From the NCBI GenBank assembly GCA_947172415.1, contig OX359195.1, positions 868,001 to 932,000 of the forward strand: a stretch of 64,000 nt of DNA, read 5' to 3'. The first letter of the stretch is position 1; every line of letters starts with the position of its first letter. A program made the position numbers and the translations under genes. This document shows positions 27,493 to 60,100 of the stretch, one piece after another. This stretch comes from Chondrosia reniformis (lineage: Eukaryota > Porifera > Demospongiae > Chondrillida > Chondrillidae). A model generated the notes under the pieces. That model was not told the origin of the DNA. It saw only the letters and a list, made by a program, of their open reading frames with translations, and made no database searches.

Positions 27493-29151
27493 TTAAGCTT
27501 GAGAAATAATGTCTACATGGATTTCAGTATGACTGGAAGAGCCTTGGCTAGTGTCCACCACACAAGTGCTAACCGACCTACTGGGCGATACAGTAGTGGG
27601 ATCATGGGAATCCAACTGCAGATTCTGTTTAGCTGTAACCGAGAGCTCATTTATTTGAGGGATTTCAGAGTGAAGGTTTGGTATTATACTGGGAATTTCA
27701 TTCTCCCTTGGACTTCGAGGGCTTGTCGCTGTAATCGGACTTTCTGGCGCGTGACTTGGAATTGTAGGACCTTTAGAGAAGTACCGTCTGGACAGACCTC
27801 TGCGAATCGAACGAGCAGTCCTGCGAAAAAAGGCCGAGTAGAGATGAAAGACATCCTTTTTAGCCAGAAAAGCGATGCAAACATAGAGGGCCTGCGGTGT
27901 TGCAAAAATCTCAAATAGATAATACAGCCAGTTTGCATCAATGGATAGATAGGCAAATAATCCGATGATCCACGTGACACCCATTAGACAAAATATCCCA
28001 AAAGCAACTCGACAATCTAACAATATTCTCTTTATTTCCATTTTATTTAAAAACTTTTTACGTTGTATCCGTAATAGAAAAGTCACAGAAATGATTCCCA
28101 TAATAACATTTATCAGAATGCTTATCGAAATGGGGACTACATAAGCCAGGATCACTGCCAAATGGTCTCGCATCCAGCACTTTCCAGAGGGTACCCTGCC
28201 ATATTGGACATGGCCGTCAGTCTTGTAATTAGTTATAATTGTTGCAAACAAGACTATGAGAGGAACGCCATAGGCAAATCCCATCGTTATAAAAAGTCGC
28301 GTTTTCGGTCTGTCCTTTTTCGCCGGTAGCAACTTCCAGGCTTTGTAGAATGTCTTTGTAATCTCTGTCACTAATATTGTCATCCAAGCAAACCTGATAA
28401 GAAAGAAATAGTGCACAATGATTGCAGTTACTTGACAGCCAATCTCATTTTGCGAGTTTTCTTCTGGGATAGCGCTACTGATGAGGTACGAGACGTCTCC
28501 AAGGATCAGAGAGATGATTAAGTTAAAGACAAGTAATCCGAAATACGTCCTTGCTCCTTCAAAAAAAGCAAACGTAACTATATACACGACGCAGCATATA
28601 ATATCCAATATTGCAGTAATTATCTCGATGACGAAGAGGCCCAAATTCGCTTTAAATAAGTTGACGGATTTTTTTGCGCATACAGTGATGGAAGTAGAGT
28701 TGAATACTATTCCTCTTGTTTTTTCAAAGTAGCTAATTTCGTCATGGCAAAGAACTGGAAACTGCCTTCCTTCACTTTTCACGTATGCTGATGATTTCGT
28801 GGACAAATTTGCGACAATCTCTAAAACGCTAAATCTTAGCGCGTGAGCGCATTCTTCGGTAGTAATTATCTGTCCGTCTTGGCACGTTTTAATTCCCCTA
28901 GCATATTCATAATACTGCAGCAGAGGATGGTTATCCGAAAGTTCATTTTTCGCCTCATCTTCGTAACTCTCCAAATGTCCACTGCTTTCACCGGAGCTTT
29001 CACCGGAGCTTTCACCGGAACCTTCTTCATCTCTACGCCTACGGAATAGCTCCATCGATATCGGTACTCCAGCTACAGCAGACCAATATTGTATGGTAGC
29101 GAGGGTTATAACAAGAAATAATACGAGGTAGAACTTCATTGTTTTTAGCAA
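27493..29151 (-). CDS. Adhesion/secretin-like 7TM G-protein-coupled receptor without GAIN/GPS region
   Basis: Single-exon gene, 552 residues. A hydrophobic N-terminus (FYLVLFLVITLATI) is a likely signal peptide, followed by a ~140-residue ectodomain with a short SGES repeat and several Cys. Seven hydrophobic helices run from about residue 172 to 418. Family B signs are the TM3 Cys (IGCQVTAI), the ECL2 Cys-Trp pair (GKCWMRDH), TM6 GVTWIIGLFAYL and TM7 ATPQALYVCIAF. There is no room for a GAIN domain or GPS cleavage site, unlike typical adhesion GPCRs. The ~120-residue tail is Ser/Pro-rich with phosphorylatable clusters and ends HVDIISQA. The ligand cannot be told. Lack of introns beside intron-rich neighbours hints at retrocopy origin. 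Confidence 0.87.
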   Translation of the reverse strand: MLKTMKFYLVLFLVITLATIQYWSAVAGVPISMELFRRRRDEEGSGESSGESSGESSGHLESYEDEAKNELSDNHPLLQYYEYARGIKTCQDGQIITTEECAHALRFSVLEIVANLSTKSSAYVKSEGRQFPVLCHDEISYFEKTRGIVFNSTSITVCAKKSVNLFKANLGLFVIEIITAILDIICCVVYIVTFAFFEGARTYFGLLVFNLIISLILGDVSYLISSAIPEENSQNEIGCQVTAIIVHYFFLIRFAWMTILVTEITKTFYKAWKLLPAKKDRPKTRLFITMGFAYGVPLIVLFATIITNYKTDGHVQYGRVPSGKCWMRDHLAVILAYVVPISISILINVIMGIISVTFLLRIQRKKFLNKMEIKRILLDCRVAFGIFCLMGVTWIIGLFAYLSIDANWLYYLFEIFATPQALYVCIAFLAKKDVFHLYSAFFRRTARSIRRGLSRRYFSKGPTIPSHAPESPITATSPRSPRENEIPSIIPNLHSEIPQINELSVTAKQNLQLDSHDPTTVSPSRSVSTCVVDTSQGSSSHTEIHVDIISQA

Positions 29152-29238: not shown

Positions 29239-32200
29239 ATGGCCGGCCGTAGGAGAAAAGTTCTACAATTGGAGAAGGGTATTACAAGAAGCGAAAACGG
29301 TACAAGCCTATTATATATTTATCAAACTTTTTTCCTATAGCATATTGCTACCAAAGAGATTTAATAATCATTTATACTATTCCATAACAGGCCATAATAA
29401 GGTAGATAGACGTGTCTTGCGTGTATACTTATATACTGTATTAATCTTTAAGGGTTGAAGGTATTGATGATAAATGTGGAAATGAGCTGGGTCTTCAGTA
29501 TCAAGCTCCTTCTGATAAGAGAATCACTACTAATTAGTGAATGAAGATTACAACTATTTTGTAGTTAGTATAAGAGGGGAAACATGAAGGAAGCATTACT
29601 ATGACAATTGTAGCTTACCTTGTCCATGTAAGTGAAAAGTATATCCACTTTATTCTTCAAAGAGCCAGTTACTGAGCAACTGTTGACATGGAAGCTTCTG
29701 AAAGTGTGTCATTAAAATCATTATTATTCTTATCGCCTAAGACTGTTAAGTATGTGTGTACTGGAGGGGAATGACTCTGTATAGAGCAGAATTATCTATT
29801 CAAGCACCAATGCTCGCTGCTACTTCTCTGAAGTGGAGCAGTAGTTGCTATTTTTACTTGTTTTTAAACCAATTTTTCTCTTGTACGTATCTCAACTATA
29901 GAATCGGCTGTAGGAGGAAAATGGCAAAAACTTGAAAGCCATCCTGCCAACCCACTTCTAGGAATGATGAGTGGTTACCATAGCGACGAGGAAGGGGAAG
30001 CTGTTCAAGATGAGGTCAGTAATAGAGTGGGCGTGTCCAACAGTGATCCCTCAAATGATACGAAACAAAAGTTGGTTGGAAAATCATTAACCTCTATGGA
30101 CACACAAATGGAAGACTTTTTGAAGGTACTGCATTATACTCTAGTGTTGTTTGTACTCGTAGCAATATATACAGTGGAATCTCATTATAGTGAAGCTAAA
30201 CGGGGAACAAATTAAGTTCCTTATATTGAATATTCACTATTATTGAATGAATTGAGATTCTACTGTATGCAAACAATGATTTTGCATTATTATATTTGCA
30301 AATAGTTACAAGTATGTTACTAAATATAACACCATATAGCCGGAAATTTTGGCAAAAGAATATTTGGCAATTTTGGACAAATTTAAATATTGGTGGTTTT
30401 AAATTTGGTGGTTACCAACGTTACAATGGATAACGTCACTATGATGCAAAAATATTGGTGGATCACAATTTGGAAATTCATGTGAAAATCATCAAATCGT
30501 TAAAATATATTATGCCTATATTTCTGGCTATATGGTATACGTACGTATACATACAATATATAGGATATGTTTGCAATATATCATGTACCATATTCTATAG
30601 TCTGGGACATTTATATTAATAAAGTTATTGTATATTTTACGTATTCGTCCAGATTCTGACACTTTTAAAGATTTCACTTTCTCTAGTTGCTTTATTGAAT
30701 TAACTCTAAAATGATAAATGCTAAAATTCTGTTAACCAAGCTATCGTAATCACTTTGTAAATTTGTTGTTGACGGATTTGATTCATGTGACTACCTATTT
30801 ACTATATTACAAGTGTCAAATGTGCAAAGATACGAATATAGTATTATAATATACAAGCTTATAAAGAATACCAATTATTTAGACATGTAGTAAGCAATTA
30901 AGAGCTATATAATCCATTACTATAATGTTATTGTTTAATCTGTTTCATAAGGTGAATAATTAATTGGTATATACGTACATGATTTATTGATAAGGAGAGA
31001 TTACAAATCTAATTTAAATGAGTACATTACTCGCAGCAAATACTCCCTACCCTTTATATATAATTTTAATAAACATTATTTGTACAGTACATAAGTATTG
31101 TAGATCCATTTGTATCAATCTTTTCCCTTGAGGAAATGTGTGGTTCATTTCCTAACTGTACAAAGATACATATCTTTATACAGTCATGAGCTGATGTGAA
31201 TCGGAAGGGTACATCAATTATAGTTTAGCAGCATTTACAAAGATGGGTTTTTTCTTTGAATTTGTCTTCCCTCCTTGAAAATGCCAAAAAAAGAAAATCA
31301 ATAGCCAATTTTTAATAATTATAATAGTAATAGTATTGAACTACGTATTTTGTCCTCTTATAATATCTTCTGACTCTCTTTGTGATATTCAGAAGAGAAA
31401 GCTTGTGAGGTTTATATCAAATGAGCTTCCTCAAATTGCAAGATTATTTCAGCACTGTATTAATGTAATATGTATACCATGATATACTTCTCACTTGCTT
31501 TCTTTACACCCCCAAAGAGCTGTTTCCAGGAATTACTTCACCAATGACCAGTAAGAACTGCAGTTTTCTGAATAATATTAGCTCATCTAATACATTGTTG
31601 ATTGAAATCACTAATGTTTAGAAAACAAAAATTGCTGTAGCATGAATTACAAATTAACAAAAGGAATTTTAATAAATATATCTTTTAGAACTGTTGTTCT
31701 TATTGAAAACATGAATAATTACTAGTTATTACACCTACCAGCCAAGTGACCAAAGTCCTATCTTGGTTGGTGGACTGAAGTGCCATTAAAAGGCAGCCAG
31801 TGATCATGAATCTCCAAGTCATCCAATATAGAAATAGTCTTAAAAACCACAGACATCTGTTTCTCCTTCATTGGATTCTTATTGTTGTGATAAAATTGGA
31901 TTGTGTGTTCCTCTCTGAACCTCCCTTTACAGAATTTTAAGTAGTGTTATGTGTTGTGTGACAGCCAATGGTCATATGTGGATGTAACTGGCAGATGATA
32001 TAATGAGTAGTAAATATTTGTGTAAATTGTACTGCACTTGTACTCTATTTGAATGACTACAGTGCTTACATAAGAGGAGGTGCAGGTGGTATTTCTATAT
32101 CACATGATAAAGTTGTTGTTAATTGTGTATCCATCTGGTCAGATTGTGTAATGGAACTGGTTCTCAGGAAGTTGTGTAGGGTGCAGTAGCTGTACAGTTC

Positions 32201-35200
32201 TGTTTACAACTGAGAGAGAAGCTATTAACAAAGATGAGTTAAGAATGATTATAGAGAGGTGATGGATTCATCCTACTCTACTTGATTGGAGATAAATGGT
32301 GGATTTTTAGAGTTAAATTGATAAGGATTTGATAGCTATGTTGGTGGATTAAAGGTTAAAACTAAATACGTCTCCATTCATCCTACTTTTGTCTTGAGGT
32401 GTACCTCAAACTTTCCTCCAAAGCTCTCTTTTCCTCCAGGAGAGAGGTTTGGTCAAGAAATGTAAGACTAACTGTGTTAGCATGCAGACATTTAGTGACA
32501 AGGAAAAACAGAGCTAATTGGTCTGAGAAATGAATTAGCTCTTATTAATGAAGTTAGTATAAGGTGTAATGATGGTTGTAAAATGAAATAAAGATCAAGT
32601 AATCTGGAAAGAAAACTTGAGAACAATCCCATTGTATAGGATTAACCTGTGCCTCTGGTCCATTAGGATACATATAGACATGTAGCACTTCCTGTGACCT
32701 CTTACAGTTTCTGGTCCATTACCTGTAGCCTATGATTAAGTGTCAAGTGCATCTGCAGTGATGAAGTGTGATTGTAATGATTATACTCCTGCTGTTACTA
32801 TATACTACTATACTACTATACTACTATACTGCTATACTACTATACTACTATACTACTATACTACTATACTACTATACTACTATACTACTACTACTACTAT
32901 ATACTACTATACTACTATACTACTATACTACTATACTACTATACTGCTATACTACTATACTACTATACTACTATACTACTATACTACTATACTACTATAC
33001 TACTACTACTACTATATACTACTATACTACTATACTACTATACTACTATACTACTATACTACTATACTACTATACTACTATACTATTATACTACTATACT
33101 ATACTTGCAGTGGAATGTGAATCTGTTTGATACATTTCTGATACATTTCTGTTAATCAAGTGCTAGATTTTATGAATAATGGATTTTTATGTCTTCCTGT
33201 GTATATAATTTATTAAATGTACAATTGCTTTTTAAATTTATTCTTTGTCTTGTTGTCTGTGGTCTTGTGTGAGATTTGGCCAGGCCATCTGTGACTGGCC
33301 AGGAGACAGTTATTACAGCTTCTGTCTCATTGGACCCCAGTTATGGCTTAATCCGGAAATGATTCGGAATTCCTCTCTAGATACAAATGTAAACTTTCAG
33401 CCGTTTAATCTCTCCATCTCTCCATGGAGACCACCAGTTTGGTCACGAATGAACTTTTCCTGTACATGATTGTATCCGTGGTTACCTAGCAACAGCCACC
33501 TCTACAAGTGGCCTCAAAGACCAGTAGTGTCCTTTGAAACATTTGAAATATTTCCTCATGAAGATGCAGTGGATGAAAGAGTGGCCATGTCTTGTGAGCG
33601 TACATAAATTTAGGTAGTACTAGAGGGTCACAAAGAGATGGAGAATCCATAAATGTGTTTCTCTCACTCTACCAGACTCTGATTTTCAACATGAGAACAC
33701 TTGTGGTCAAAGTATCTGGTTAATGTCTGGCAGCTATCCCATAATCTAATTGGATTGCAACCCTGCCCCCATTACTGTACAGCTATCATCATTCAATCAC
33801 ATCCAGTATTATATAATTTAAAAAACTCATCATCCAGGAGGGAAAAACTGAGTTTCCAAGTAATATTGAAGGAAGTACGTATATGGAAGCTAATGTTTTA
33901 TTGTATTGGAGGTGGAGTATCTAGATTGGCTATCCTTACCTCTAGGTTGTACAATTTAAGAATGGTATTTAGCTTAGGGAAAATGTCTCCCAAACTGCAC
34001 TCCTTGATATCATTGTTAAGTCAGTGAGTGAGTTGTCATATGTGTCATGTGACTGTCAGGTGACTGTCAGCTGACTCTCCATGGCTACATTGTTCAAAAA
34101 TGACTAGTTTAGTAACTTGTGGTGTCACCATTTTTATTTTAGTACATCATTATGATTGTTGTGGTTCCAATCACTTGGACCATCTTGTTTAGAATTTCCA
34201 GTAATCTTGTTTACTTTTGCCTACTTTATGACCACCTGATTGAGCAATTGTTCATTTAATGTGAATTAAATATAGAAATGATTCTTTTCATGTTTCTTCT
34301 CCTCAGGCTATCAGCACACTGGAGTCTGACAATGCTCCGCCCTCCTCCCCAGTCAGGGAGACCTCTGACGACAAGAGGGAGGAGAGGGAGGAGAGGGACC
34401 ACATGAGAACTGAAGGAGAATCTACTGAAAACATTCCTGTTAATTCCAACCAAATGGAGGAATCCTCAAGGTACATATATGTACGTATATTATCAAAAAT
34501 ATTGTAATTTTGCAGGACTTGCTCAAAAATCCATGTCTGTGGAAACAGCTATCCTTTTTAAAATAATTGTAATATGTCTCTGTCTGTCCGTCTGTCCGTC
34601 CGTCTGTCCGTCCGTCTGTCTGTCTGTCTGTCCGTCCGTCCCTCCGTCTGTCTCTTAGTTTTTACATCTCATATTGAAACTGCCGGTTTTCTTGTAACTT
34701 CATTTTGTAGTCATGATGACTTTATTAAACCATCTGACGATTAATCACAAAATACAGAAATTGTTTGCTTATCTTTTAGAAAAAAAGTTGTGGTTGTCTT
34801 ATATTAACTCTGTACACATACAGTGTAGTTGCTATCAGTTAGTATTTCATGCAAGAATCACAAAATATGCTGATACAGCAAATTTCTATACTAAACTGTA
34901 TACTAAGTTATCGGCAGGATATCTTATGGTATAACTATAATAAGAGGCCAAAGTGTCTCTTATTATAGTGTTATACAATGGTTATGGAATACGTATACAT
35001 TGCCTTGGTTGGCCCAGCAACAGAGTGCATTTATTATATATATATGATACAGTGGACCCTAGCTGTGAATATACTCTTTTTTAAGACCTTTTTCAGTAAC
35101 TCTATAAAACTCACTTTACAATTGTATACTAAACAAATGAATATTAATATAGTTGTGGTTGGCATATCTTTATTACCTGCAGTCAAGATGAATATTAATA

Positions 35201-38200
35201 TAGTTGTGGTTGGCATATCTTTATTACCTGTAGTCAAGATGAATATTAATATAGTTGTGGTTGGCATATCTTTATTACCTGTAGTCAAGATGAATATTAA
35301 TATAGTTGTGGTTGGCATATCTTTATTACCTGTAGTCAAGATGAATATTAATATAGTTGTGGTTGGCATATCTTTATTACCTGTAGTCAAGATGAATATT
35401 AATATAGTTGTGGTTGGCATATCTTTATTACCTGTAGTCAAGATGAATATTAATATAGTTGTGGTGGGCATATCTTTATTACCTGTAGTCAAGATGAATA
35501 TTAATATAGTTGTGGTTGGCATATCTTTATTACCTGTAGTCAAGATGAATATTAATATAGTTGTGGTTGGCATATCTTTATTACCTGTAGTCAAGATGAA
35601 TATTAATATAGTTGTGGTTGGCATATCTTTATTACCTGTAGTCAAGATGAATATTAATATAGTTGTGGTTGGCATATCTTTATTACCTGTAGTCAAGATG
35701 AATATTAATATAGTTGTTGTTGGCATATCTTTATTACCTGTAGTCAAGATGAATATTAATATAGTTGTGGTTGGCATATCTTTATTACCTGTAGTCAAGA
35801 TGAATATTAATATAGTTGTGGTGGGCATATCTTTATTACCTGTAGTCAAGATGAATATTAATATAGTTGTTGTTGGCATATCTTTATTACCTGTAGTCAA
35901 GATGAATATTAATATAGTTGTTGTTGGCATATCTTTTATTACCTGCAGTCAAGATGAATGGCAGATGTGCACTGATCAAAACTCTGGCTATACCTATTAC
36001 TGGAATACTCTCACTAACAATGTATCCTGGACACTCCCACAAGGGGTCACGCCCACCAACCTACAGGACAAGGACACTTCTAACACTGATATGAGTGTGA
36101 GTGAAGAGAACACTGGTGAAGTTGTGTATGGCCCAACCATCCTGGAGGAGGCGGAGTTAGATGTCCCCTCCCCCTCCCCATGCACGGCAGAGATACAGGA
36201 GGAGGCTGATCTCCAGGAGAATGTAGATCCTGAGGAAGTTGACAAGACTGGTACCACTCTGAAATTGGATATGCAAAATGGAAATGGGAATGAGGATTCA
36301 GAAGCCAATCAAGATGGAGTCAGTTTAGTGGGATATGTTCCTTCAGAATCAGACGAGTCGGACATTGATAACATGCTTGACAGTGCACTGGAGGCTATCC
36401 TGGAGGAGGGACCACATAACGGAGACACACTGCCAACCAGTCAGAAACCAATCACAGAAGCTGGTCCAGATAGTCCTTTAGCTAAAAAGACAAGAATAGC
36501 AGACAATTTAGAAGATGAAGAAAGTGTTACTAGAGATGATAGCAGTAAAGATGATGTTGATGGTATGGAAGTGGGTGTGACTGGTGATAAAGAGGGAGTG
36601 GCTAACTTGAAGCCCAACAATGGAAGTAATCGTCCTCAACTGCAAGATTGTTCTGAGGAGGACAACTTGTGTAATCCCAATCTTACTAAGGTATGCATTG
36701 ATTGAGGTATGCATAGATAGTACAAATTAAGTAATGGGCTCATAAGATTGCATAATTCTATATACATACGTATATATACGTATGTACATTGCATAATTCT
36801 ATATACATACGTATATATCACTGCATGTCTTTGAGATGGTTCATCTTTTAGTCTTTTGAACGTCTAGAGGCGCAGTCAGTTCTTTTAGATTCAAACGTTT
36901 CGACCCTGGTGATCTTCTTCAGTCACTTTCTGTTGAAATGTTCAAAAGACATAAGATCCCTAGCAATTGGTTATAAGATTCAATTGCTTCTTTGTGTTTT
37001 TCTTCTCTACTCTATTAGGAGACTACAGAGTTCACTTGTAAAATGATTTTAAAGAGGCTAGCCCTATTAGGAGCTGTTACCATGGGAACACATCCACTTA
37101 TTATAGAATTAATCAAGGTTGAGGTTTGTACATATAATATATTGCACTGCTCTTCTCCACTATTGTCAGGTAGCATCTCATTTTACAGGTCAGAGTCAAT
37201 GATTGGAGAGAGGGGGTGTTACCAACACAATATCTCTTGCAGAAATTAGAGGAAACTACTCTTGCCCTGAAAGAATATGAGACTCAAGTAGCTCCAACTG
37301 GATGGACTTTTGTTTGGGATAGGTGGGTGCTTTATGCATTTGGTATACCCACTTCAGATCACATGATAGTCACGTGACATTTAAACTGACAAACTGTACT
37401 GTAATGCATCTTTGAAAGTAAGCCTCTGAAAGTGTGGCTTGCGCTAGTCTCCCTAGAGACGTATCTCGTTCAGTACACCAGAGGAAAGTTTGATTATAGG
37501 GATTTCCTCACGGCAGAACAAGTTTGATGTAGTCAGCTAGGAGGTGTGAGTTGCCATGGTAATGAGTAATTCGAATTGTTATCATGTAACATATGTACAT
37601 TTTACTGATTAAAGAATTATCTATTTTCTTATCAAATTGTGTCTAACATTTAAATATTTATATGTATTTATAAATATATGTATTTTTTACTATGTAGTCG
37701 CAATCATTGAACATTTCTATATGCTTTTCAGTGCTTTTGTACTAAACTCTATTCAGTTCCTCTAGTGACACAATATCACTTCTTCCATTGTAATGTAGTG
37801 ATTTTGAAAGGTATTACTACTATAATGCTGTCACTGATAAGGCTTCATGGGACTTTCCCTCTGATGACGTCATAGAGGGCGGGGCCATAGGACAGGGAAG
37901 AGAAGCTAGTGAGGAACAGACTCCAATCAAAAGCCAGAAGAATGTACACTCCTCCCACTCAAGAGAGACCACACCTCCACCAGGTATATAATGTACACTC
38001 CTCCCACTCAAGAGAGACCACACCTCCGTCAGGTATATAATGTACACTCCTCCCACTCAAGAGAGACCACACCTCCACCAGGTATATAATGTACACTCCT
38101 CCCACTCAAGAGAGACCACACCTCCACCAGGTATATAATGTACACTCCTCCCACTCAAGAGAGACCACACCTCCACCAGGTATATAAGTTATATCAAGTA

Positions 38201-39762
38201 AAGACGAACACAATTAGGGACTCTCAGATCAAAAGCTGATCTTAGGCTCCGATGTCTCATCTCTGGAGTTCTGGAAGTTCACTAATGGGAACCAGAGTCT
38301 TCCTGGTTTCCATTAAGGGAGCTACATCTAGCTCCTCAGGAGACATGAGTGGGTGGGGTAATTCTAGAGTCTATATACTGATGAGACAAAGTAGAAATAT
38401 GTTTCAAGAACTATAATTACAAATGTGGAGTTTTCCTCTACACTACTTAACCTTATAATAATATTATTACATGTTCAATGCATCACACTATATGAGTTCT
38501 GTAAGTAATGAACAAGTGAGTGGGTCCAGCTGAACTTGGCCTTATTAGAGAGGTGGGTGCATTATAGAAAACCTCATATATGGCCCATTATTGTATGTAT
38601 AGAGAAGTTCTCATTAAGTTTATATAGTTCCCTATAGACCTTTCAGATGTAGCATTATTCATATACATGTACGTGTATCATTTTTGCCGGAACTTTAAGA
38701 GGCGACCATAATAAGGAGGTGACTGGTCTATTCAGGTGACCTCTTTCACAGGATTTACAATAATTCCACCTTACCTATATAGCTACCTGCCATGTAATGA
38801 ACTTCTTATATACATACTGTAGGTGTTGAAGAATTAATTGCTCTGCCTACAGTTGAGGGGGTGTGGCAAGGTCCCCCTCCTCCCCCTCCCCCTCCCTTAG
38901 AAGAAGGGGAAATCCCTCCCTCTCCTCCAACTCCCCCGTCTCCTCCTCCAGATAAAGAAGCAGAGAAAGATGAAAGTGAGAGCGATCCTGAAGAATTTAT
39001 AGTTAAAGCTGAGCCTCAAATTTATTATGGTCCAGTGGGTCCTCCCGGAAGATTGAATGATGTAAGTCTACCCGTGTGAACTGTACAGTATATATCACAT
39101 AAACTGGTACCATAAAGAGGGATATTTTTGAGGATAGAAATTTTTGTGAATCTTTGAAAAGGTCCTCAGAATATATGTGATTCTTATTTGACTATTGCTG
39201 AGAGTGAGAGCTAATCATGTGAAACTCAAGAAAAATGGTGGAGGAAATTTTTATGATTTTGGGGTTAGCTTGCAAATTAGAATAGTATAAAGCTAAACTA
39301 AAGATGTCATGTAGAGCCAATGAACTCCTCCCATGTAAGGTGGCTAGAATCTAAGGATGCTGGGAAAACAAATAGTGTCAACGTCCCAATGTATGTGTCT
39401 GAAACATGAACACTCAAATGATCCATGTTCCTCACAATACGAGGGTACATTTCAAATTATGGTCCAGGGTGATCACTTTAGAGGGATCTCTCTATACTGA
39501 AATGGACATGTAACACCTGTAGGTGACCACTGAAGGTGCTGTGGGGTCAAGAGAAGGCAGTCCCAGTCAGGACAGTGATTCAGAACCAAAGAAGAAGAAA
39601 TCAAAGAAGGTCTGCTACCCAGTAGTAGTCAATAGTGTTATTTGTAAATGAATGATGCCCTATGTACTTCCTCTGCAGGTTAAAGTTAGTGTACAGGGAA
39701 GGAAAGGAAAGACCATCACATCACTCTTACAGAAGTGGTCAGGACTACATCAGAACAATTAA
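29239..39762 (+). CDS. FNBP4: Formin-binding protein 4-like protein, two WW domains (copy 1, intact)
   Basis: Ten phase-compatible exons: 29239-29299, 29902-30125, 34307-34470, 35949-36690, 37019-37123, 37189-37322, 37811-37983, 38823-39061, 39523-39609, 39679-39762, coding for about 670 residues (human FNBP4 is near 1000). Start: aaaaaATGG context, MAGRRRKVLQLEKG. Exon 2 gives the NPLLGMMSGYHSDEE motif. WW1 is in exon 4 (DEWQMCTDQNSGYTYYWN), WW2 spans exons 6-7 (PTGWTFVWDR joined to YYYYNAVTDKASW). The segment VRVNDWREGVLPTQYL ... LKEYETQVAPTGW is the strongest match to FNBP4. Exon 8 has polyproline, exons 9-10 a basic tail (GRKGKTITSLLQKW). In vertebrates FNBP4 WW domains bind proline-rich formin segments. 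The 4.2-kb intron 2 crosses the left edge of a duplication, so exons 1-2 could in principle splice to either copy. Confidence 0.83.
32800..33105. repeat. (CTACTATA)n microsatellite, FNBP4 intron 2
   Basis: About 300 bp of ctactatactactata with ctactacta interruptions. The remainder of intron 2 (30130-34300) shows no exon; 33245-33469 is open on the plus strand, but I could not recognise it. Confidence 0.95.
34575..34655. repeat. (GTCT/GTCC)n microsatellite
   Basis: Short tetranucleotide tract, gtctgtctgtccgtccgtct and similar. The equivalent tract in copy 2 is at 45510-45602 and has diverged in sequence. Confidence 0.9.
35136..35948 (+). repeat. 51-bp array repeating the 3' splice site of FNBP4 exon 4, ~16 copies
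   Basis: Each unit runs atgaatattaatatagttgt, ggttggcatatctttattac, ctgtagtcaag. It therefore contains a branch-point-like tattaat, a pyrimidine tract and ctgtag|TCAAGATGAA, the same string as the true acceptor ctgcag|TCAAGATGAATGG at 35948. Splicing to any upstream copy would read SQDEY and then stop. The unit length is 17 codons, so both strands are open; the resulting 298-575-residue frames are artefacts. Confidence 0.93.
35949..36690 (+). CDS. FNBP4: FNBP4 exon 4: WW domain 1 and acidic linker
   Basis: The exon opens at the WW core: Trp of DEWQM, the YYWN aromatic block, and the second signature Trp in VSWTLP. About 200 acidic, Ser-rich residues follow (DEESVTRDDSSKDDVDG), low in structure. 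It is the largest exon of the gene and enters in phase 2, leaves in phase 0 (AAG|gtatgc). Confidence 0.85.
36830..36960 (-). mobile_element. Foldback-family copy in FNBP4 intron 4
   Basis: Contains gtcttttgaacgtctagagg and the core caaacgtttcgaccctggtg with atcttcttcagtcac. The orthologous copy at ~47510-47635 shows the insertion predates the duplication. Confidence 0.7.
37984..38179 (+). repeat. 49-bp array repeating the 3' end of FNBP4 exon 7 plus its donor
   Basis: Four extra copies of gtatataatgtacactcctc, ccactcaagagagaccacac, ctccaccag follow exon 7. Each ends in CCACCAG|gtatat, the same donor as the exon. Copy 2 at 48601-48660 has only one. As 49 is not a multiple of 3, use of successive donors would shift frame. 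Confidence 0.92.
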
Positions 39763-40135: not shown

Positions 40136-40345
40136 ACATGTGACTGGTTGCTAGGAGACTGAGGGAATTAGAAGGTAGATTCCACCTATATTTGACTGGT
40201 TGCTAGGAGACTGAAGGGGAATTAGAAGATAGACTCCACCCACATGGGACTGGTTGCTAGGAGACTGAAGGGGAATTAGAAGATAGACTCCACCCATATG
40301 TGACTGGTTGCTAGGAGACTGAGGGGAAATTAGAAGGTAGACATC
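40136..40345. repeat. ~56-60-bp tandem repeat, 4 copies
   Basis: Units built on tgactggttgctaggagact with aattagaagatagactccac. It lies between FNBP4 copy 1 and the orphan ORF; 39763-40135 otherwise shows only the FNBP4 3' region. Confidence 0.88.
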
Positions 40346-41500: not shown

Positions 41501-43224
41501 ATGGCCGTAGCCGAAGACTTTAGACTAGGACTAGAACGGAACTTGGACATTGAGTACATGAACTACCGAGAAAGGTTAGTTTCTGTTATTAGTGAGGAGA
41601 CTGAGGTGTTAGCGTTAGACAGAAAAGTGGGTTTACAGGTCAGAAATAGCGATAAGGCAAATGGGGTAATGTCTCAGACATTGTTACTTTTATAGTGACT
41701 TATCTTCTCTACAGGGATCACGCCGCGTGGTCCAAGTCTGCGAGCACATCAACAGCATCAAAGTTGAATTTACCTGACTACATTCGCGAAGACTTTACAC
41801 TTCACGACCGTGACTTTGAGGCTGCATTGAACGGACGAGACAAGCAATATTACAATCTCTGTACCCTTTGTGAAAGTGCTGGGGTCCCTTTGACAGGTGA
41901 AGATGGGGAAGATGCGTCTCGTTTCATTAAACACTGCACTGGTTCACGTGAATACAATTGTCATTCTGACAAAATTGTTAAGCAGTGGGAGGCTTTGCCA
42001 GATTTATTTTGTACTACAAAACAAAGACCTGATATATGGATCTTAGAGGGGGAAGACAGAGGAAATGTTGTCATACTCGTTGCCGAAGTACACTCAGGGA
42101 AAGGACCCAAAGGATATAGAGAAACATTAAATAAAGAGGTCATTGGACTTATGACACAGCTGCGTATGCTGCGATACCAGTACAATATTAATCAAGTTGT
42201 TGGGTTTGTACTTCCTAACAGTAGTGAGCCCTTTTTTGTCACAAAGGTGACCGTACGGTTTGAGGCACTCTCCTTTTACTATGCATTTGAAAGGGTATCA
42301 TCTTGGAAAGAAGTGAAAGCAAGTGTTAAGGCAGGGTACCAAGCCAACGAGGATGCTATTGGTCGACTTGGACCCTCTCTCAATCATATTCGTGCATATC
42401 CCATCAAACTAACAGAAGCAGAGCTTGGTGAACTTGGGAGAAACTTTAAACTTAAGGAAGGAGTCACAATGGCACAACTACAGTCCTGGAACTCCTTCAT
42501 CTTACATGCTGATATTGGAAAAATCTACAAATTCTGCCTTAATAAGGAAAATTATACAAACACTGCTTTGTTTACCTTTACCATCAAAGAATTGCAACAC
42601 GAGGAACGAAGAATAGATCGTCTGCTTTTGCATGAACAGAAACTTCCTGTTTTCAATCTTGATATTCCATTCCTTCAATTTCCTGCAGCAATTCCGCCAC
42701 TCAGCGCTAGTGAGGCCCAAAAGTGTCTTGTAGCCTTGTTGAGGAGTACCAAAGAGGCAATTGATCAGCTTCATAGCTTTAATTATGCACACTTGGATAT
42801 TCGTTTGCCAAACATTTGTTTCAGGAATGATGGAGAAAAAGTATATGCAGTGTTGATTGATTTTGAACGTGTTAAAAGAAATGTAGGGTCGGATACAATT
42901 CCAAAATATAATAGCTGTTTGTACCGTTTTTTGGAGGGTCGCTTGACTCGTGGACAGTGCGACTTTATGCAGCTAGGCTGGATGGCAGTGTGGATACTCC
43001 ATTTCAATGATGCGCTTGCTGGCTATGATCCACACAGTCTGGATACTGCATGGGAGAAAGGTCGTATTCCATCAAACACCAAAGAAGACCCATTTATAAA
43101 AGAGCTAGTGCAATATGGAAATTTTCTTGACCAGCATCTTGACAACAGCGAAGTATTCAGAGACAGCCAACAATCCCTTAAAGAAGTACTGAAGATACGT
43201 ACAATAAGCAGGCAGTCAGTTTGA
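41501..43224 (+). CDS. Kinase-like protein with possible nuclease-like N-terminal half
   Basis: Two exons, 41501-41574 and 41715-43224 (AG|gttagt to ctctacag|G), coding for 503 residues. The C-terminal part has a protein-kinase-like core: LHSFNYAHLDIRLPNICF, an HxDxxxxN catalytic loop, followed by VLIDFERV where DFG would lie. A Gly-rich loop is not evident. The N-terminal part contains RPDIWIL ... VVILVAEVHSGKGPKGYRETLNKEV, a D-x(n)-E-x-x pattern that could be a PD-(D/E)XK-type fold; this is inference. Such nuclease/kinase-like pairs occur in Crinkler-type proteins. Promoter region 41340-41500 has an inverted CCAAT (attggtcc). A polyadenylation signal aataaa is at 43336. It lies between the two FNBP4 copies and is not itself duplicated. 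Confidence 0.78.
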
Positions 43225-44547: not shown

Positions 44548-45849
44548 GTGAGCGTACAAAAATTTACAAAAATTTAGTACTAGAGGGTCAGAATCCATAA
44601 ATGTGTTTCTCTCACTCTACCAGACTCTAATTTTCAACATGAGAACACTTGTGGTTAAAGTATCTAGTTAATGTCTGGCAGCTTTTCCATATTCTAATTG
44701 GATTGCAACCCTGCCCCCATTACTGTACAGCTATCATCATTCAAACACATCTAGTATTATATATTTTAAAAAAGTCATCAAGGAGGAAAAAACTGAGTTT
44801 CCACATAATATTGAAGGAAAAGTATGGAAGCTAATGTTTTATTGTATTGGAGGTAGAGTATCTAGATTGGCTATCCTTATATACCTCTAGGTTGTACAAT
44901 TTAAGAATGGTATTTAGCTTAGGGCAAATGTCTCCCAAACTGCACCCCTTGATATCATTGTTAAGTCAGTGAGTGGATTGTCCTATTGTGTCATGTGACT
45001 GTCAGGTGACTCTCCATGGCTACATTGCTAAAAATGACTAGTTTAAGTAACTTGTGGTGTGGTGCCACCATTTTTATTTCAATACATCATTATGATTGTT
45101 GTGGTTCCAATCACTTGGACCATCTTGTTTGGAATTTCCAGCAATCTTGTTTACTTTTGCCTACTTTATGACCACCTGATTGAGCAATTGTTCATTAATG
45201 TGAATGAAATATTGCAATGATTCTTTTCATGTTTGTTCTCCTCAGGCTATCAGCACACTGGAGTCTGACAATGCTCCGCCCTCCTCCCCAGTCAGGGAGA
45301 CCTCTGACGACAAGAGGGAGGAGAGGGAGGAGAGGGACCACATGAGAACTGAAGGAGAACCTACTGAAAACATTCCTGTTAATTCCAACCAAATGGAGGA
45401 ATCCTCAAGGTACATAGATATATATATTATAGAATTTTTTTTAATTTTGTAGGACCTGCTCAAAAGTCCATGTCTGTGGAAACAGCTATCCTTTTTAAAA
45501 TAGTTATATGTCTGTCTGGCCGTCTGTCTTTCTCTCTGTCTGTCTGTCTATCTATTTATCTTTCTCTCTGTCTGTCTGTCTGTCCATCCATCTGTCTATC
45601 TCTTAGTTCTTACAACACATAATGGGTTTTCATATTTGTAGTATAGTGATGACTTTAAACTATCTGATGTACGAAGTACAGAAATTGTGTTCGCTTATCT
45701 TTTAGAAAAATAGTTGTGGTTGTCTTATTTTAACATTTATGTATGTATAGTTGCTGTCAGGTAGTAATTCATGTAAGAATCATGAAATAGGCTGATTTAG
45801 CATATTTGTTTAGTATACTAAATAAAGAAAGTAACTCCAATCTTTATCA

Positions 45850-46661
45850 AGATGAAAATTAATATAGTTGTGGTTGGCATATCTTTATTACCTGCAGTCA
45901 AGATGAATATTAATATAGTTGTGGTTGGCATATTTTTATTACCACAGTCAAGATTACTATTAATATAGTTGTGGTTGGTATATCTTTATTACCTGTAGTC
46001 AAGATGAATATTAATATAGTTGTGGTTGGCATATCTTTATTACCTGCAGTCAAGATGAATATTGATATAGTTGTGGTTGGCATATCTTTATTACCTGTAG
46101 TCAAGATGAATATTAATATAGTTGTGGTTGGCATATATTTATTACCTGTAGTCAAGATGAATATTGATATAGTTGTGGTTGGCATATCTTTATTACCTGT
46201 AGTCAAGATGAATATTAATATAGTTGTGGTTGGCATATCTTTATTACCTGCAGTCAAGATGAATATTAATATAGTTGTGGTTGGCATATCTTTATTACCT
46301 GCAGTCAAGATGAATATTGATATAGTTGTGGTTGGCATATCTTTATTACCTGTAGTCAAGATGAATATTAATATAGTTGTGGTTGGCATATATTTATTAC
46401 CTGCAGTCAAGATGAATATTGATATAGTTGTGGTTGGCATATCTTTATTACCTGTAGTCAAGATGAATATTAATATAGTTGTGGTTGGCATATCTTTATT
46501 ACCTGCAGTCAAGATGAATATTGATATAGTTGTGGTTGGCATATCTTTATTACCTGTAGTCAAGATGAATATTAATATAGTTGTGGTTGGCATATATTTA
46601 TTACCTGTAGTCAAGATGAATATTGATATAGTTGTGGTTGGCATATCTTTATTACCTGTAG
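45850..46661 (+). repeat. 51-bp 3'-splice-site array in FNBP4 copy 2, ~16 copies
   Basis: Same unit as at 35136, but alternating variants (aatattaatatag / aatattgatatag; atatctttatt / atatatttatt; ctgtag / ctgcag) give a partial two-unit higher-order pattern absent from copy 1. It ends at the real acceptor ctgtag|TCAAGATGAATGG. Confidence 0.92.
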
Positions 46662-47509
46662 TCAAGATGAATGGCAGATGTGCACTGATCAAAACTCTGG
46701 CTATACCTATTACTGGAATACTGTCACTAACAATGTATCCTGGACACTCCCACAAGGGGTCACGCCCACCAACCTACAGGACAAGGACACTTCTAACATT
46801 GATATGAGTGTGAGTGAAGAGAACACTGGTGAAGCTGTGTATGGCCCAACCATCCTGGAGGAGGCGGAGTCAGGTGTCCCCTCCCCCTCCCCATGCACGG
46901 CAGAGATACAGGAGGAGGCTGATCTCCAGGAGAATGTAGATCCTGAGGAAGATGACAAGACTGGTACCACTCTGAAATTGGATATGCAAAATGGAAATGG
47001 GAATGAGGATTCAGAAGCCAATCAAGATGGAGTCAGTTTAGTGGGTTATGTTCCTTCAGAATCAGATGAGTCGGACATTGATAACATGCTTGACAGTGCA
47101 CTGGAGGCTATTCTGGAGGAGGGACCACGCAACGGAGACACACTACCAACCAGTCAGAAACCAATCACAGAAGCTGGTCCAGACCAGATAGTCCTTTAGC
47201 TAAAAAGACAAGAATAGCAGACAATTTAGAAGATGAAGAAAGTGTTACTAGAGATGATAGCAATAAAGATGATGTTGATGGTATGGAAGTGGGTGTGACT
47301 GGTGATAAAGAGGGAGTGGCTAACTTGAAGCCCAACAATGGAAGTAATCGTCCTCAACTGCAAGATTGTTCAGAGGAGGAGAACTTGTGTAATCCCAATC
47401 TTACTAAGGTATGCATTGATTGAGGTATGCATAGATAGTACACATTATGTAATGGATTCATAAGATTGTGTAATTCAATATATTATATATACATATGTAC
47501 ACTGTCTTT

Positions 47510-48819: not shown

Positions 48820-49901
48820 CTTTCATCTTCTTCTCCACTGGGTCAGACAGCTGTTTCTGGGAATTCCACCCTTCATCAGTGATCCTGGGAGTCTTTGTCT
48901 TTTTCTTTATCTTGATCTTCTGTGAATCCTTGGCTCACTATGCTAAATCTAGGGGCCTTATATACACTATTTTGGCGCCAAAAGTTAAATAAGGTGTTAA
49001 CTAAGACACATGATGAAATTTAATTTTATGAAAGGAATGTAGGTCCAATTAACTTTTATGAATTAATTATAAATCTAATAGTAATCCTGCTTGTACAGAT
49101 AAAACAGACTCAGCATAACTATAGACAAAAGTAGGACATATTACGTAAGTCTACCCTTAGGTCTTCTAGTAGTAACATTTCTTTGGAGGTGGGATAACAC
49201 AATATGGGGTAACACAAGACAGTCCTTAAGCATACTAGCTACTTTTTGCTTATACTTGATTCTAACTAGAGGCTGCCGGGATAGGAAGGTTTTAAAGGTT
49301 GATTATAGCTTAAAGTATTTGTAACCCTGCTTAATAAGCCTATTGCATAACTGCAAACTTTTAGCCTGAAAACTGGAGAAGTCACTACATATTCTGGAAT
49401 ACCTAATTAGTTGTGAAATAAAGACACCATAGGCTGGGGTATTAGGAATATTACTATCTAAATGGGGGAAATTTACTATAACAAAGTTAAAGTCCTCTCG
49501 CTTATCATATACTTTAGTGATAAATTGATTGTTAGTAATGGTTATATCTAAGTCTAAAAAGGGGGATTTTTTAGGGCTGGTATTTGTCTTTTTAAGAATA
49601 AGTTCTTTGGGGTAAATATCACTAATTGACAGTTCAAAATCCTTGTTGTTAATACATAAAAGGTCATCAATATACCTATAAGTATTGGAAAATTTAATAG
49701 CTAGGGTGATGTTATATGTACATTTTACTGATCAAAGAATTATCTATTTTCTTATTAAATTTAGTGTCTAACATTTAAATATTTACATATATTCTATTTA
49801 GTTGCAATTATTGAACATTTCTATATAATATATGATTTTCAGTGCTTTTGTACTAAACTCTATTCAGTTCCTCTAGTGACACAATATCATTAGCTCATCT
49901 A
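48820..49901 (-). mobile_element. Retroelement insertion flanked by 14-bp direct repeats
   Basis: Absent from copy 1. cattagctcatcta occurs at 48806-48819 and 49888-49901 and looks like a target-site duplication. Reading on the minus strand: a 180-bp piece of FNBP4 intron 6 (49712-49887), a reverse-transcriptase fragment, a non-coding segment, then a tail (48830-48960) belonging to the interspersed family of 13024. The tail includes ctgatgaagggtggaattcc and cagaaacagctgtctg. This ties those scattered repeats to one element family, probably Penelope-like. Confidence 0.7.
49303..49712 (-). pseudogene. Reverse-transcriptase fragment (YIDD type)
   Basis: Open for ~136 codons without a Met. Contains the catalytic box YRYIDDLL, then SPFLDLDITI and VYDKREDFNFVIVNFPHLD ... 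AYGVFISQLIRYSRIC, a pattern typical of Penelope-like or related metazoan elements. The upstream fingers part and any endonuclease domain are missing, so this is a dead 5'-truncated copy. Confidence 0.75.
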
Positions 49902-57146: not shown

Positions 57147-60100
57147 CTACAGAAGGTAATACAAGTGATGAGTGTCATCAGTCAAGTTGAATATTCACAC
57201 TTCATAGATAGTCACAAGCTTAAGGTATTAGGAGCAATCAATACACACTGTACTGGATCTATTAATTTGTAACTTCTTCTATATATGGCATGTCAATAGT
57301 CTACAAAAGTGTTTTAGTCACACATCTCAACTAACAATATCAACTCACTTGAAATTGTGACTTCTTCCAAATATGTCACCTTCTCAGATATTTGCTGAAA
57401 AAATGATTGTATTGATGATGTATATCTATCAAATTGAACTGAAAGTCTTTTGATGTGTCTGCTGATGGTCATCAGGTAAGCTAAACTGTTGAGCTGATGG
57501 GGACTGAGATCAATAATGTCAGCATCACTACAATACTCCATGACCCTTTGACATAGCTCTTCATTTCTGCTCTCTGCTACTGCTGTAGCAATCTCAGTGA
57601 AAGGGGTCCATCTAGCAAACCTGCGATCTTTGGTAAATGCAAGAGGCTCAAACAAGAGGTCTTTCACAGCATCATTCTCTAGTCCTCCAATGCCGCAGAA
57701 GAAAAGGAATGGCATCTCGTAGTTGGAGTCTGATAAGACAAACTCTCCTCTCTTGTTGTACCCAAGAACAAGTCTCTCTTTCCAGAACTTTCTCTGTTCT
57801 TCGGCAGGTAATTGCTTGACTGCACAAGCTGCAAGAAATTCTTGAACTGTTCTGTGAAGAAAGTGGTACGATCTAGTGACTCCACCAAAGGCACTTCGAT
57901 AAGAGATGCAGTTCATTAGACCAAAATGATCATCTTCTGACAGCTTCAGATTATGGAAAATGATGACATCTTTCTGCACACCATCCAAGGCAAGTTGACT
58001 CAGTTTGATCAAACGGGGGCAGAGTCGCAGGACATCCTCAAAACTGTCAATTTCCATTTCCACTCCATTCTTCTCAAAGTGTCGCTTCACAGTGAGGCAG
58101 ATGATGCTTTTAAATAGATCACTGATTGTATCGGGAGGGGCATCAAGGACATCATTGACATAACATGTCATCAGCAGGATCAGAGGGATGAAGCAAATGG
58201 CTTTGATTCGAGGCATGGTAGAGTTCAGCCTTGCTAGTAAAGCATCAGCTACAGAACTAGATGACTCTCCATAGTACTCTCTTATAAACTGCTCAATCTC
58301 TTCCTCTCCAAATCCACTCACCTCGATGCGTCTGTCTATCTTGTTATGTAGAGGGGCTGATGCTCGTGGTCGGGATGTGATGATAAAGGATGACTGGGGG
58401 AGCGTCTTGCCGTTTATAATGTCTGCAACCAGAGATTTCTTCTGTAGCTTTTCAGGGAACTCATCGTAGCCATCCATGATGAACAGTGTGTCCTTTCCCT
58501 TGTTGGCTGTGATGTACCAACTCAAAGTGGACACATCTTCTTCATCAAGACTTGCCCCAACATCACTGGTACAGCTACGAACTAGGTCCTCTACACTCAG
58601 TGTGGTATCGGAAGGAAGACCTCGGAGTACTATGCGAATGACTAGCTTGTATTCACTGGCAAATGTACCCTCAGCAAACTTGTAGCACAGCTGTTTGGTC
58701 AGAGTGGACTTGCCTATACCAGGCTCTCCTTCTAGCAGGATGCGTTTCCTTGGAGGTCGCACAGGCTTGTACTCCAAGATCTCCTGCAGGCCAATTGGTC
58801 CACCCTTGAAAGGTTCCCTTCTGTGTGGTGTAGAACAGGCGAGTTTCACAGCTGCAGCATCTTCTGCTCTTCTTGGTTTGAGATCAGAGGGATTGACCAA
58901 GTGAAGTCTAACAAACCCCATCTCAGCTAGTTTCAGTAGCCAGTGGTCAGCTATGACAGGACCTCTGTAGAGTGATTTGAGGCTCTCAATGGCTTTCTCC
59001 TATAAAGTATTACAGATATAAAATGTATATAATATAACAAGAAATTCTTCTGTATATGGTGACATATAATAATTATAAGTTACATACCATGTGTAACAAA
59101 CTAATTAACAGGTACATGTAAACGTACAAGGTTGGTGTCTGTAGTCGTTGGATCTTTTGACTGACTGGTGGATGGACCTACAAACCACATGAAAGTGATT
59201 GAGACATGTAAAACACTAACAAAATATATATTGTGAGATGAGGATGAATGGAGAATACTTCTGGTTTATGATATTTTTGGCATGGATAATAGTAATAATA
59301 AATCTTTCTGAAGATTGTAATTCGTACGTACATTAATTGTATACATCATCGATATACAGTAGCGATTAAAAATTTCTTGCCGTGTAACACGGAGTTAGCA
59401 CGCATTAACCGAACGATGCTCGTACGATACTCGCACGGACATAAAGAAAATCGTCACCATAATATGTAATTATCAGTAATAGTTACATTTTACACATTAT
59501 CTAACACCTCGCCGCTATCATAGAAGCAAAGTTTAAAGCACTATCGAGTCGGCAATGCAGTGCTGAAAATAACGGTCGGTCATCAGTCAATTTCCGCGCA
59601 AAAATCGTTGATTCGGAAATTCAAAGCTTTGGTCGGCCATCTTGACCGAGCACAAAAGGCCGACCGTTAATCTGTAATGTAGGAACAACGTGTAAATGGT
59701 TTTTTCACACGTTTTACCCATTGTTCCTTTGAATCGAGTATCAGTGGTAAGATGAAGAGGGGATTTTCCAAAGCATCTGAGGGCGAACCTGCGCAGAAGC
59801 GAGCTGTCAGTTACAAAACGTTCAAAAAGTGGCGCACGGACTTGGATCGTGAGTATCAAACCGTTTCATGGCTCGACTGCGACACGACGCAATTTCAGCG
59901 AACGATGGATTGTCGGTGCCGATTCAGTTCACACGAGCAACGTCAAAGACCACGCTCAGTCTGATCAGCACGCGCACGCAATGATGCTGCTAAGAAAAGA
60001 GCAAGGAAGAGCCGCTATAGTCGTTACTATAAAAAAAAAGTGCTCACGATTTTATTGAAATATAACGTCCGACCAAATTATCTGAGTGTCCGACCATAAT

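What the first reader, a model, noticed from the sequence alone, without database searches (positions are those of the whole stretch)
35136..35990. A 3' splice site amplified ~16-fold as an intronic minisatellite
Each 51-bp unit before FNBP4 exon 4 carries a branch-point-like tattaat, pyrimidine tract and ctgtag followed by TCAAGATGAA, the same bases that start the real exon. The array is therefore a ladder of decoy acceptors. Using any upstream one gives SQDEY then stop, so the cell must select the last AG or lose the transcript. This could tune expression through nonsense-mediated decay, or test how the spliceosome chooses among near-identical acceptors.
Basis: partly seen in the sequence, partly recalled or inferred. 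Interest (0 to 1): 0.82.

Follow-up and report, generated by a model that had tools for sequence, protein, structure and literature searches.

The report
Splice-site ladder in sponge FNBP4 family
In a sponge, a DNA repeat has copied the start signal of one gene segment up to 16 times in a row, so the cell must pick the right copy; related gene copies carry from 1 to 16 signals, which makes a natural experiment on how splicing chooses, although no use of the extra signals has been shown.

Summary
Window 35137-35948 holds sixteen 51-bp units, each with TATTAAT, a pyrimidine stretch and YAG|TCAAGATGAA, before the WW1 exon (35949-36690) of an FNBP4-like gene. The genome fits the sponge Chondrosia reniformis.

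The wider picture was missed. At least 31 paralogous loci lie on one chromosome, two in this window (second array 45847-46661), with 0 to 15 decoy acceptors. Of 138 decoys read, 136 meet a stop within seven codons, mostly because the next unit's TATTAAT reads TAT TAA. A second minisatellite in the same gene (37941-38187, 49 bp x 5) duplicates a donor site.

Six of 31 copies are uninterrupted over the eight exons tested; they carry 1, 1, 3, 4, 11 and 15 decoys. Decoy number does not track intactness, and the last acceptor is not clearly stronger. Best reading: slippage or unequal exchange across splice junctions in a repeat-rich, partly decaying family, tolerated because splicing usually finds the exon-adjacent site. 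Splice use, NMD and tuning are untested. Known relatives: human minisatellites at exon-intron boundaries of paralogues, and the IFI6 donor minisatellite. New variant of a known kind.

The parts
29964..30125 (+). E1: candidate first coding exon, MMSGYHSDEEGEAV...MEDFLK, donor AAG|GTACTG, phase 0
   Evidence: open-frame scan and only weak, non-significant similarity to human FNBP4 recalled from memory (E 15 piece by piece); 22 matches in the genome, partial ones included, all on C7
34307..34470 (+). E2: coding exon before the array (AISTLESDN...MEESS), donor AAG|GTACAT
   Evidence: 26 matches in the genome, all on C7
35137..35948 (+). acceptor ladder: sixteen 51-bp units, consensus TCAAGATGAATATTAATATAGTTGTGGTTGGCATATCTTTATTACCTGTAG; 15 decoy acceptors plus the real one at 35948/35949
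35949..36690 (+).
   Evidence: PF00397 WW, 31.4 bits against cut-off 26.9; gene model
37019..37117 (+). E4: coding exon (ETTEFTCKMILKRL...)
37189..37322 (+). E5: coding exon (VRVNDWREGVLPTQYL...)
   Evidence: tblastn with recalled human FNBP4, E 6e-10
37799..37983 (+). E6: WW2 exon, ends CACCTCCACCAG|GTATAT inside the donor minisatellite
   Evidence: two WW stretches in the joined protein
37941..38187 (+). donor ladder: five 49-bp units, each the end of E6 plus its 5' splice site (...CAG|GTATAT)
   Evidence: TRF; 1 to 9 units by core motif in paralogues
38823..39061 (+). E7: proline-rich coding exon
39523..39609 (+). E8: coding exon
39679..39762 (+). E9: last coding exon with stop (...TSLLQKWSGLHQNN*)
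45847..46661 (+). second acceptor ladder, 16 units of the same 51-bp unit, in the second gene copy of this window (W2)
46662..47408 (+). WW1 exon of copy W2, interrupted by a frameshift; its WW2 exon is also interrupted

Best explanation
A splice-junction minisatellite in a multi-copy FNBP4-like gene family. Founding step (inferred): slippage or unequal exchange between ATGAAT in the intron, about 45 bases before the acceptor, and ATGAAT at +6 of the exon duplicated 51 bp that hold a branch-point-like motif, pyrimidine stretch, AG and the first 11 exon bases. Later exchange made arrays of up to 16 units and also joined different 3' parts of the upstream intron to the same array and exon in different paralogues. 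The productive mRNA must use the last acceptor; a decoy gives an immediate stop, mostly because the next unit's TATTAAT reads TAT TAA in that frame. A separate 49-bp duplication did the same to the donor of exon E6. How it works (inferred): splicing mostly joins the exon-adjacent site, because only that site borders real exon sequence with a downstream donor; some transcripts are probably lost to decoys. I read the arrays as tolerated by-products in a repeat-rich, partly decaying family, not as a maintained regulator. Shown: anatomy, frames, copy series. Not shown: any splicing, NMD or expression effect.
For: Array, exon junction and frames. Family of at least 31 loci with 0-15 decoys. Copies with one acceptor and no decoy (L034, L035) show what the state before expansion would look like (a contraction cannot be excluded), and ATGAAT lies at both ends of the unit. 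Array length differs greatly between copies that are close downstream: L022 (12 units) and L026 (three full units plus a partial one) differ by 1.05% in 2 kb, W1 (16) and L015 (2) by 1.41%; in both pairs fewer than 400 of the last 700 intron bases align (312 and 385), although sequence farther upstream is homologous. Upstream and downstream distances do not correlate (Spearman -0.05, P 0.32, 380 of 465 pairs; 85 dropped for too few aligned bases). Tolerance: 6 of 31 copies are uninterrupted over E2-E9 with 15, 11, 4, 3, 1 and 1 decoys against 0-15 in the other 25 (P 0.46); each of the six has an E1 match without stops upstream. Pooled dN/dS 0.42 (bootstrap 0.27-0.69) in those six and 0.55 (0.42-0.73) in 24 broken copies. 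Tandem-repeat background: 24 arrays, 9575 of 64000 bp in the window. No sign that RNA structure hides the decoys: the array folds less stably than all 20 shuffles, z +4.75.
Against: Both expanded minisatellites of this gene (unit 20 bp or more) sit on splice junctions. If their founding 51- and 49-bp duplications fell at random in the gene, both spanning a splice site has P 0.007, which hints at more than accident; this is a post-hoc sample of two, and placing whole arrays at random gives no excess (mean 2.3 sites covered, 2 observed, same call). An extra T in the pyrimidine stretch is commoner in the last unit (4 of 30 against 1 of 140, P 0.0036), which could mean selection on the last site; the copies are not independent and the test is post hoc. 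dN/dS below 1 in both groups means that some copies were, or are, under constraint. Unit-number difference rises weakly with downstream distance (Spearman 0.10, P 0.027, 465 non-independent pairs), so lengths are not wholly free of descent.
Confidence: 0.7

Rival explanations
1. Unproductive-splicing rheostat: decoy acceptors compete with the real one, and the number of units sets how much of each paralogue's transcript is lost to nonsense-mediated decay.
For: 136 of 138 decoys give an early stop; decoys are complete copies of the site; 0 to 15 decoys per copy; the donor ladder acts in the same direction, since reading past the first donor gives GI-stop.
Against: No link between decoy number and intactness; long arrays also occur in broken copies, W2 (16 units), L012 (15), L011 (11); unit number differs widely between copies that are close downstream, unlike a tuned setting. 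No expression data.
Confidence: 0.15
2. Enhancer-like crowding: the repeated branch-point and pyrimidine motifs raise U2/U2AF binding near the exon and help recognition of the last acceptor, so longer arrays splice better.
For: Units are near-identical and unstructured as RNA; W1, with 16 units, is uninterrupted.
Against: No direct evidence; competition is the simpler expectation when each unit is a complete acceptor; copies with a single decoy (L015, L028) are also uninterrupted.
Confidence: 0.06
3. The array is coding: the frame (MNINIVVVGISLLPVVK)n is open through the whole array and, in this copy, runs into the exon, so a transcript may translate it.
For: 578-codon open stretch 34969-36705; predicted protein P0002 from another record joins one unit to the exon.
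Against: A 51-bp unit is a multiple of 3, so one open frame is unremarkable; in W1 the join depends on one extra T in the last unit, seen in 4 of 30 last units, and L022 has another such T inside the array; W2 joins out of frame; in W1 the spliced gene gives a continuous FNBP4-like protein without the array.
Confidence: 0.04
4. Assembly or collapsed-haplotype artefact.
For: Repeats of this kind are hard to assemble; the paper reports that 4 haplotypic duplications were removed in curation (PMC12181767, passages).
Against: 28 of 31 copies carry decoys, with several kinds of flank; HiFi reads, QV 69.8. Exact unit counts could still be off.
Confidence: 0.03

Closest known systems
Variable internal tandem repeats at exon-intron boundaries of human genes in segmental duplications (De Grassi and Ciccarelli 2009, PMC2812944; passages read)
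   Same: Minisatellites whose unit number differs between recent paralogues and that lie on exon-intron boundaries; paralogues in large groups
   Different: There on average 30-bp units repeated 4 times, with transcript support and reported new introns; here 51 bp repeated up to 16 times, each unit a whole acceptor of an existing intron, acceptor and donor both affected in one gene, no transcript data
[quoted passage not shown] seen as a reference and one sentence in PMC4526556, and as a reference in PMC2572611; the paper itself is not held)
   Same: A minisatellite whose units act as splice sites
   Different: Donor sites; beyond the title and that sentence nothing of it was read. Here mainly acceptors, with a separate donor array
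Human introns derived from tandem arrays (Zhuo et al. 2007 PNAS; seen only in the reference list of PMC2812944)
   Same: By its title, tandem arrays as a source of alternatively spliced introns
   Different: Concerns origin of introns; here the intron is also present in the decoy-free copies L034 and L035
Engineered tandem duplications of splice sites in beta-globin (Reed and Maniatis 1986; recalled, not looked up)
   Same: Competing identical sites, chosen by proximity and exon context (recalled)
   Different: Artificial constructs; here a natural series of 1 to 16 acceptors

Membership tests
FNBP4 (formin-binding protein 4) homologues | two WW domains | tested here: met
   PF00397, 2 stretches, 49.8 bits in the joined 631-aa protein
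FNBP4 (formin-binding protein 4) homologues | significant similarity to human FNBP4 also outside the WW domains | tested here: met
   tblastn with human FNBP4 recalled from memory: region of E5 E 6e-10; WW1 60% over 30 aa, E 8.6e-9; WW2 40% over 20 aa, E 0.1, not significant; E1 E 15, not significant. Database search with the joined protein (only the 7997 candidates sharing most words were scored) gave one WW-domain protein at E 3.5e-6 and none named FNBP4
Minisatellite | head-to-tail units of about 10-100 bp, number variable | tested here: met
   51 bp, 98% matches; 0 to 16 units found across 31 paralogues
Variable tandem repeat at an exon-intron boundary of segmentally duplicated genes | unit spans the boundary and its number differs between paralogues | tested here: met
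Variable tandem repeat at an exon-intron boundary of segmentally duplicated genes | transcripts show altered splicing | not testable with these tools
   no transcript data reachable; no processed copy spanning the junction among the 40 matches listed (40 of 56 candidates scored)
IFI6-type minisatellite supplying multiple splice sites | more than one repeated site is used in mRNA | not testable with these tools
   needs RNA-seq
Regulated unproductive splicing coupled to NMD | alternative site brings in a premature stop | tested here: met
   136 of 138 decoys
Regulated unproductive splicing coupled to NMD | element kept by selection in functional copies | tested here: inconclusive
   decoy number unrelated to intactness, P 0.46; last site not richer in CAG, P 0.40; extra T in last unit P 0.0036
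Regulated unproductive splicing coupled to NMD | decoy isoform made and degraded | not testable with these tools
   needs RNA-seq with NMD blocked

The most novel reading that the evidence does not exclude
The number of decoy acceptors (and donors) works as a length-coded splicing brake: each FNBP4-like paralogue's output falls with its unit count, minisatellites are founded preferentially at splice junctions, and array expansion gives the family a fast, heritable way to set the dose of each copy.
Probability: 0.08. Interest if true: 0.85.

Novelty: new variant of a known kind. Interest (0 to 1): 0.52.

Why it matters
Splice-site choice among near-identical acceptors has mostly been studied with engineered duplications (recalled). 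Here one genome holds 31 paralogous loci, 30 of them with the exon start, carrying 0 to 15 decoys, among them close pairs (W1 with 15 decoys and L015 with 1, 1.41% apart downstream, both uninterrupted in the tested exons). Public RNA-seq from the same specimen could show which acceptor wins and whether decoys cost expression. It also documents minisatellites spanning splice junctions, acceptor and donor, in one gene.

Tried and rejected
Coding array: rejected as the main reading (see rivals). RNA structure hiding decoys: no support, z +4.75. Rfam families in the window: none at gathering thresholds. Processed copies as fossils of the mature junction: none of the 40 matches listed spans the E2/E3 junction (40 of 56 candidates scored), so no fossil evidence of splice choice. 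Outgroup copy at C7:3253529 for polarity: in the 6 kb fetched only the last bases of the WW1 exon align and no array was found, so not useful. Stronger last acceptor: CAG not enriched. Genome base rate of tandem repeats from six 4-kb samples: 5 arrays, 4159 of 24000 bp, but from two samples only, too small to use. Literature: searches (15 of 16 rows listed; 5 of 5) on sponge minisatellites and FNBP4 in sponges, nothing on point in the titles and abstract starts shown; others (24 of 24; 9 of 10; 2 of 2; 15 of 41; 12 of 17; 10 of 16) gave PMC2812944 and the IFI6 lead and nothing closer among the rows listed; passages of PMC12350158 were off the point.
Full report
WHERE IT IS. The window is G000:C7:868001-932000 of a genome of 117,379,552 bases in 15 contigs. 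This fits Chondrosia reniformis odChoReni1.1 (117.37 Mb, 14 chromosomes plus mitochondrion, scaffold N50 8.46 Mb; C7 is 8,459,200 bases) in PMC12181767, of which I read passages. The species is inferred from size and contig numbers, not from a named record.

THE ARRAY. TRF finds 35137-35959, period 51, 16.1 copies, 98% matches. Sixteen units run up to the acceptor at 35948. The consensus unit is TCAAGATGAATATTAATATAGTTGTGGTTGGCATATCTTTATTACCTGTAG: the first eleven bases equal the start of the exon, TATTAAT has its last A about 35 bases before the end of the unit, and YAG closes the unit. The branch-point role of TATTAAT is by resemblance only. In the frame set by the upstream exon a decoy reads S-Q-D-E-Y-stop, the stop being the TAA within TATTAAT of the next unit. 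Over 30 copies (L037 left out, its exon being truncated) 138 decoys were read: 136 reach a stop within seven codons, 116 as SQDEY* (in some units TAA is TGA); two read on to codon 20.

THE GENE. Copy W1 gives an open frame through nine exons (29964-30125, 34307-34470, 35949-36690, 37019-37117, 37189-37322, 37799-37983, 38823-39061, 39523-39609, 39679-39762), introns GT-AG, 631 aa plus stop. Pfam finds two WW stretches. tblastn with human FNBP4 recalled from memory matches WW1 (60% of 30 aa, E 8.6e-9) and the region of the exon at 37189 (E 6e-10); WW2 is weak (E 0.1). The first exon is a candidate without significant similarity (E 15). The continuous frame needs the last of the 16 acceptors and the first of the donors, at 37983.

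A SECOND LADDER. The donor of the WW2 exon lies in another minisatellite, 37941-38187, 49 bp x 5, each unit ending CAG|GTATAT. Of the 30 copies where that exon was found, 10 have more than one unit by core-motif count, up to 9 in L011. Reading past the first donor gives ...GI-stop. Across the copies TRF finds four distinct tandem loci with unit 20 bp or more in the stretch from E2 to E9; the two that grew beyond 2.2 copies are these two splice-junction arrays. Random placement of two founding duplications puts both on splice sites with P 0.007, whereas random placement of whole arrays shows no excess. Both tests are post hoc.

THE FAMILY. A 163-base probe gave 31 loci on C7, 903-1351 kb (+) and 2374-2634 kb (-), and no match elsewhere among the scored candidates; the tool calls such counts lower bounds. 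Two lie in this window, the other 29 were fetched. Further places on C7 match the next exons but not the start of this one. Decoys per copy: 0 in L034, L035, L036; 15 in W1 and W2; 28 of 31 have at least one. Against W1 exons E2-E9 (called e3-e10 in the scripts), six of 31 copies are uninterrupted: W1 (15 decoys), L022 (11), L013 (4), L026 (3), L015 (1), L028 (1). The other 25 have frameshifts, stops, lost splice dinucleotides or missing exons; for some, such as L009, missing exons may lie beyond the fetched stretch. Each of the six has an E1 match without stops on the same strand upstream, those of the five others than W1 outside the fetched stretches. Copy W2 in this window is broken in E3 and E6.

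TESTS OF FUNCTION FROM SEQUENCE. Decoys in the six against the other 25: P 0.46. Last unit (30 copies, L037 left out) against internal units, partial ones included: CAG 12 of 30 and 44 of 140, P 0.40; within-copy test 10 of 27, expected 7.5, P 0.14; extra T in the pyrimidine stretch 4 of 30 and 1 of 140, P 0.0036, copies not independent. The AG itself is kept in 137 of 140 internal units, but units are too alike to tell constraint from homogenisation. Pooled dN/dS 0.42 (0.27-0.69) in the six and 0.55 (0.42-0.73) in 24 broken copies (L037 left out); single pairs vary, W1 against L015 being 2.09 from only 2 synonymous differences. The W1 array is less structured than all 20 shuffles.

HOW IT AROSE. 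L034 and L035 have one acceptor and no decoy, as expected before expansion or after a contraction. ATGAAT occurs both in the intron at the left end of the unit and at +6 of the exon, as slippage would need. The last few hundred bases of the upstream intron come in several types joined to the same array and exon; farther upstream, E2 and its surroundings are homologous in most copies (26 E2 matches) but were not found upstream of the array in L019, L021, L033, L035 and L036. Trees of the 700 bases upstream and the 2 kb downstream disagree, and distances do not correlate (Spearman -0.05, 380 of 465 pairs; unalike introns force poor alignments, so this is a rough measure). L022 and L026 differ by 1.05% downstream but have 12 and three full units; W1 and L015 by 1.41% with 16 and 2; L011 and L012 by 1.56% with 11 and 15. 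Over all 465 pairs unit difference rises only weakly with downstream distance (Spearman 0.10, P 0.027). Array length thus differs widely between close copies, whether by change in place or by exchange, and the array region looks like a place where upstream and downstream parts were recombined (inferred).

WHAT IT IS LIKE. Variable minisatellites at exon-intron boundaries of human segmental-duplication genes are described in PMC2812944 (passages), and a minisatellite giving several donor sites in IFI6 is cited in PMC4526556 (passages). This case differs in being an acceptor ladder of up to 16, in having a donor ladder too, and in offering a graded series of paralogues. In the searches made (not all rows were listed) I saw no paper on this locus; the library lacks most subscription journals.

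VERDICT. The mechanism that I favour is a tolerated splice-junction minisatellite with exon-adjacent choice; loss of some transcripts to decoys is likely but unproven. The regulatory reading is possible and cheaply testable with the RNA-seq run that already exists.

Noticed in passing
window 37941-38187: 49-bp minisatellite duplicating a 5' splice site in the same gene; used in the argument.
   Followed up: yes
window 40136-40342: A third minisatellite (54 bp x 3.9) just after the gene; L031 has several overlapping matches to it, so probably more units.
   Followed up: no
window 1362-3669: 55-bp unit x 42, the longest array of the window.
   Followed up: no
window 57317-58999 (-): NACHT-domain open frame, 97 bits.
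   Followed up: no
window 41656-43221 (+): 522-aa open frame with a weak Kdo/WaaP kinase match, between the two FNBP4-like copies.
   Followed up: no
window 27496-29151 (-): Secretin-type 7TM receptor open frame without introns in the matched part, 96 bits.
   Followed up: no
window 49303-49731 (-): Open frame that looks like a reverse-transcriptase fragment (by eye, not searched), in a part of copy W2 that has no match in W1.
   Followed up: no
L009, L010, L018, L026, L032 and L019, L033, L036: Two kinds of last intron stretch, unlike that of W1, joined to the same array and exon; the array region may be an exchange point between paralogues.
   Followed up: partly
window 35137-35948, frame MNINIVVVGISLLPVVK: The unit has one open 17-codon frame that in W1 runs into the exon through an extra T in the last unit.
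   Followed up: partly
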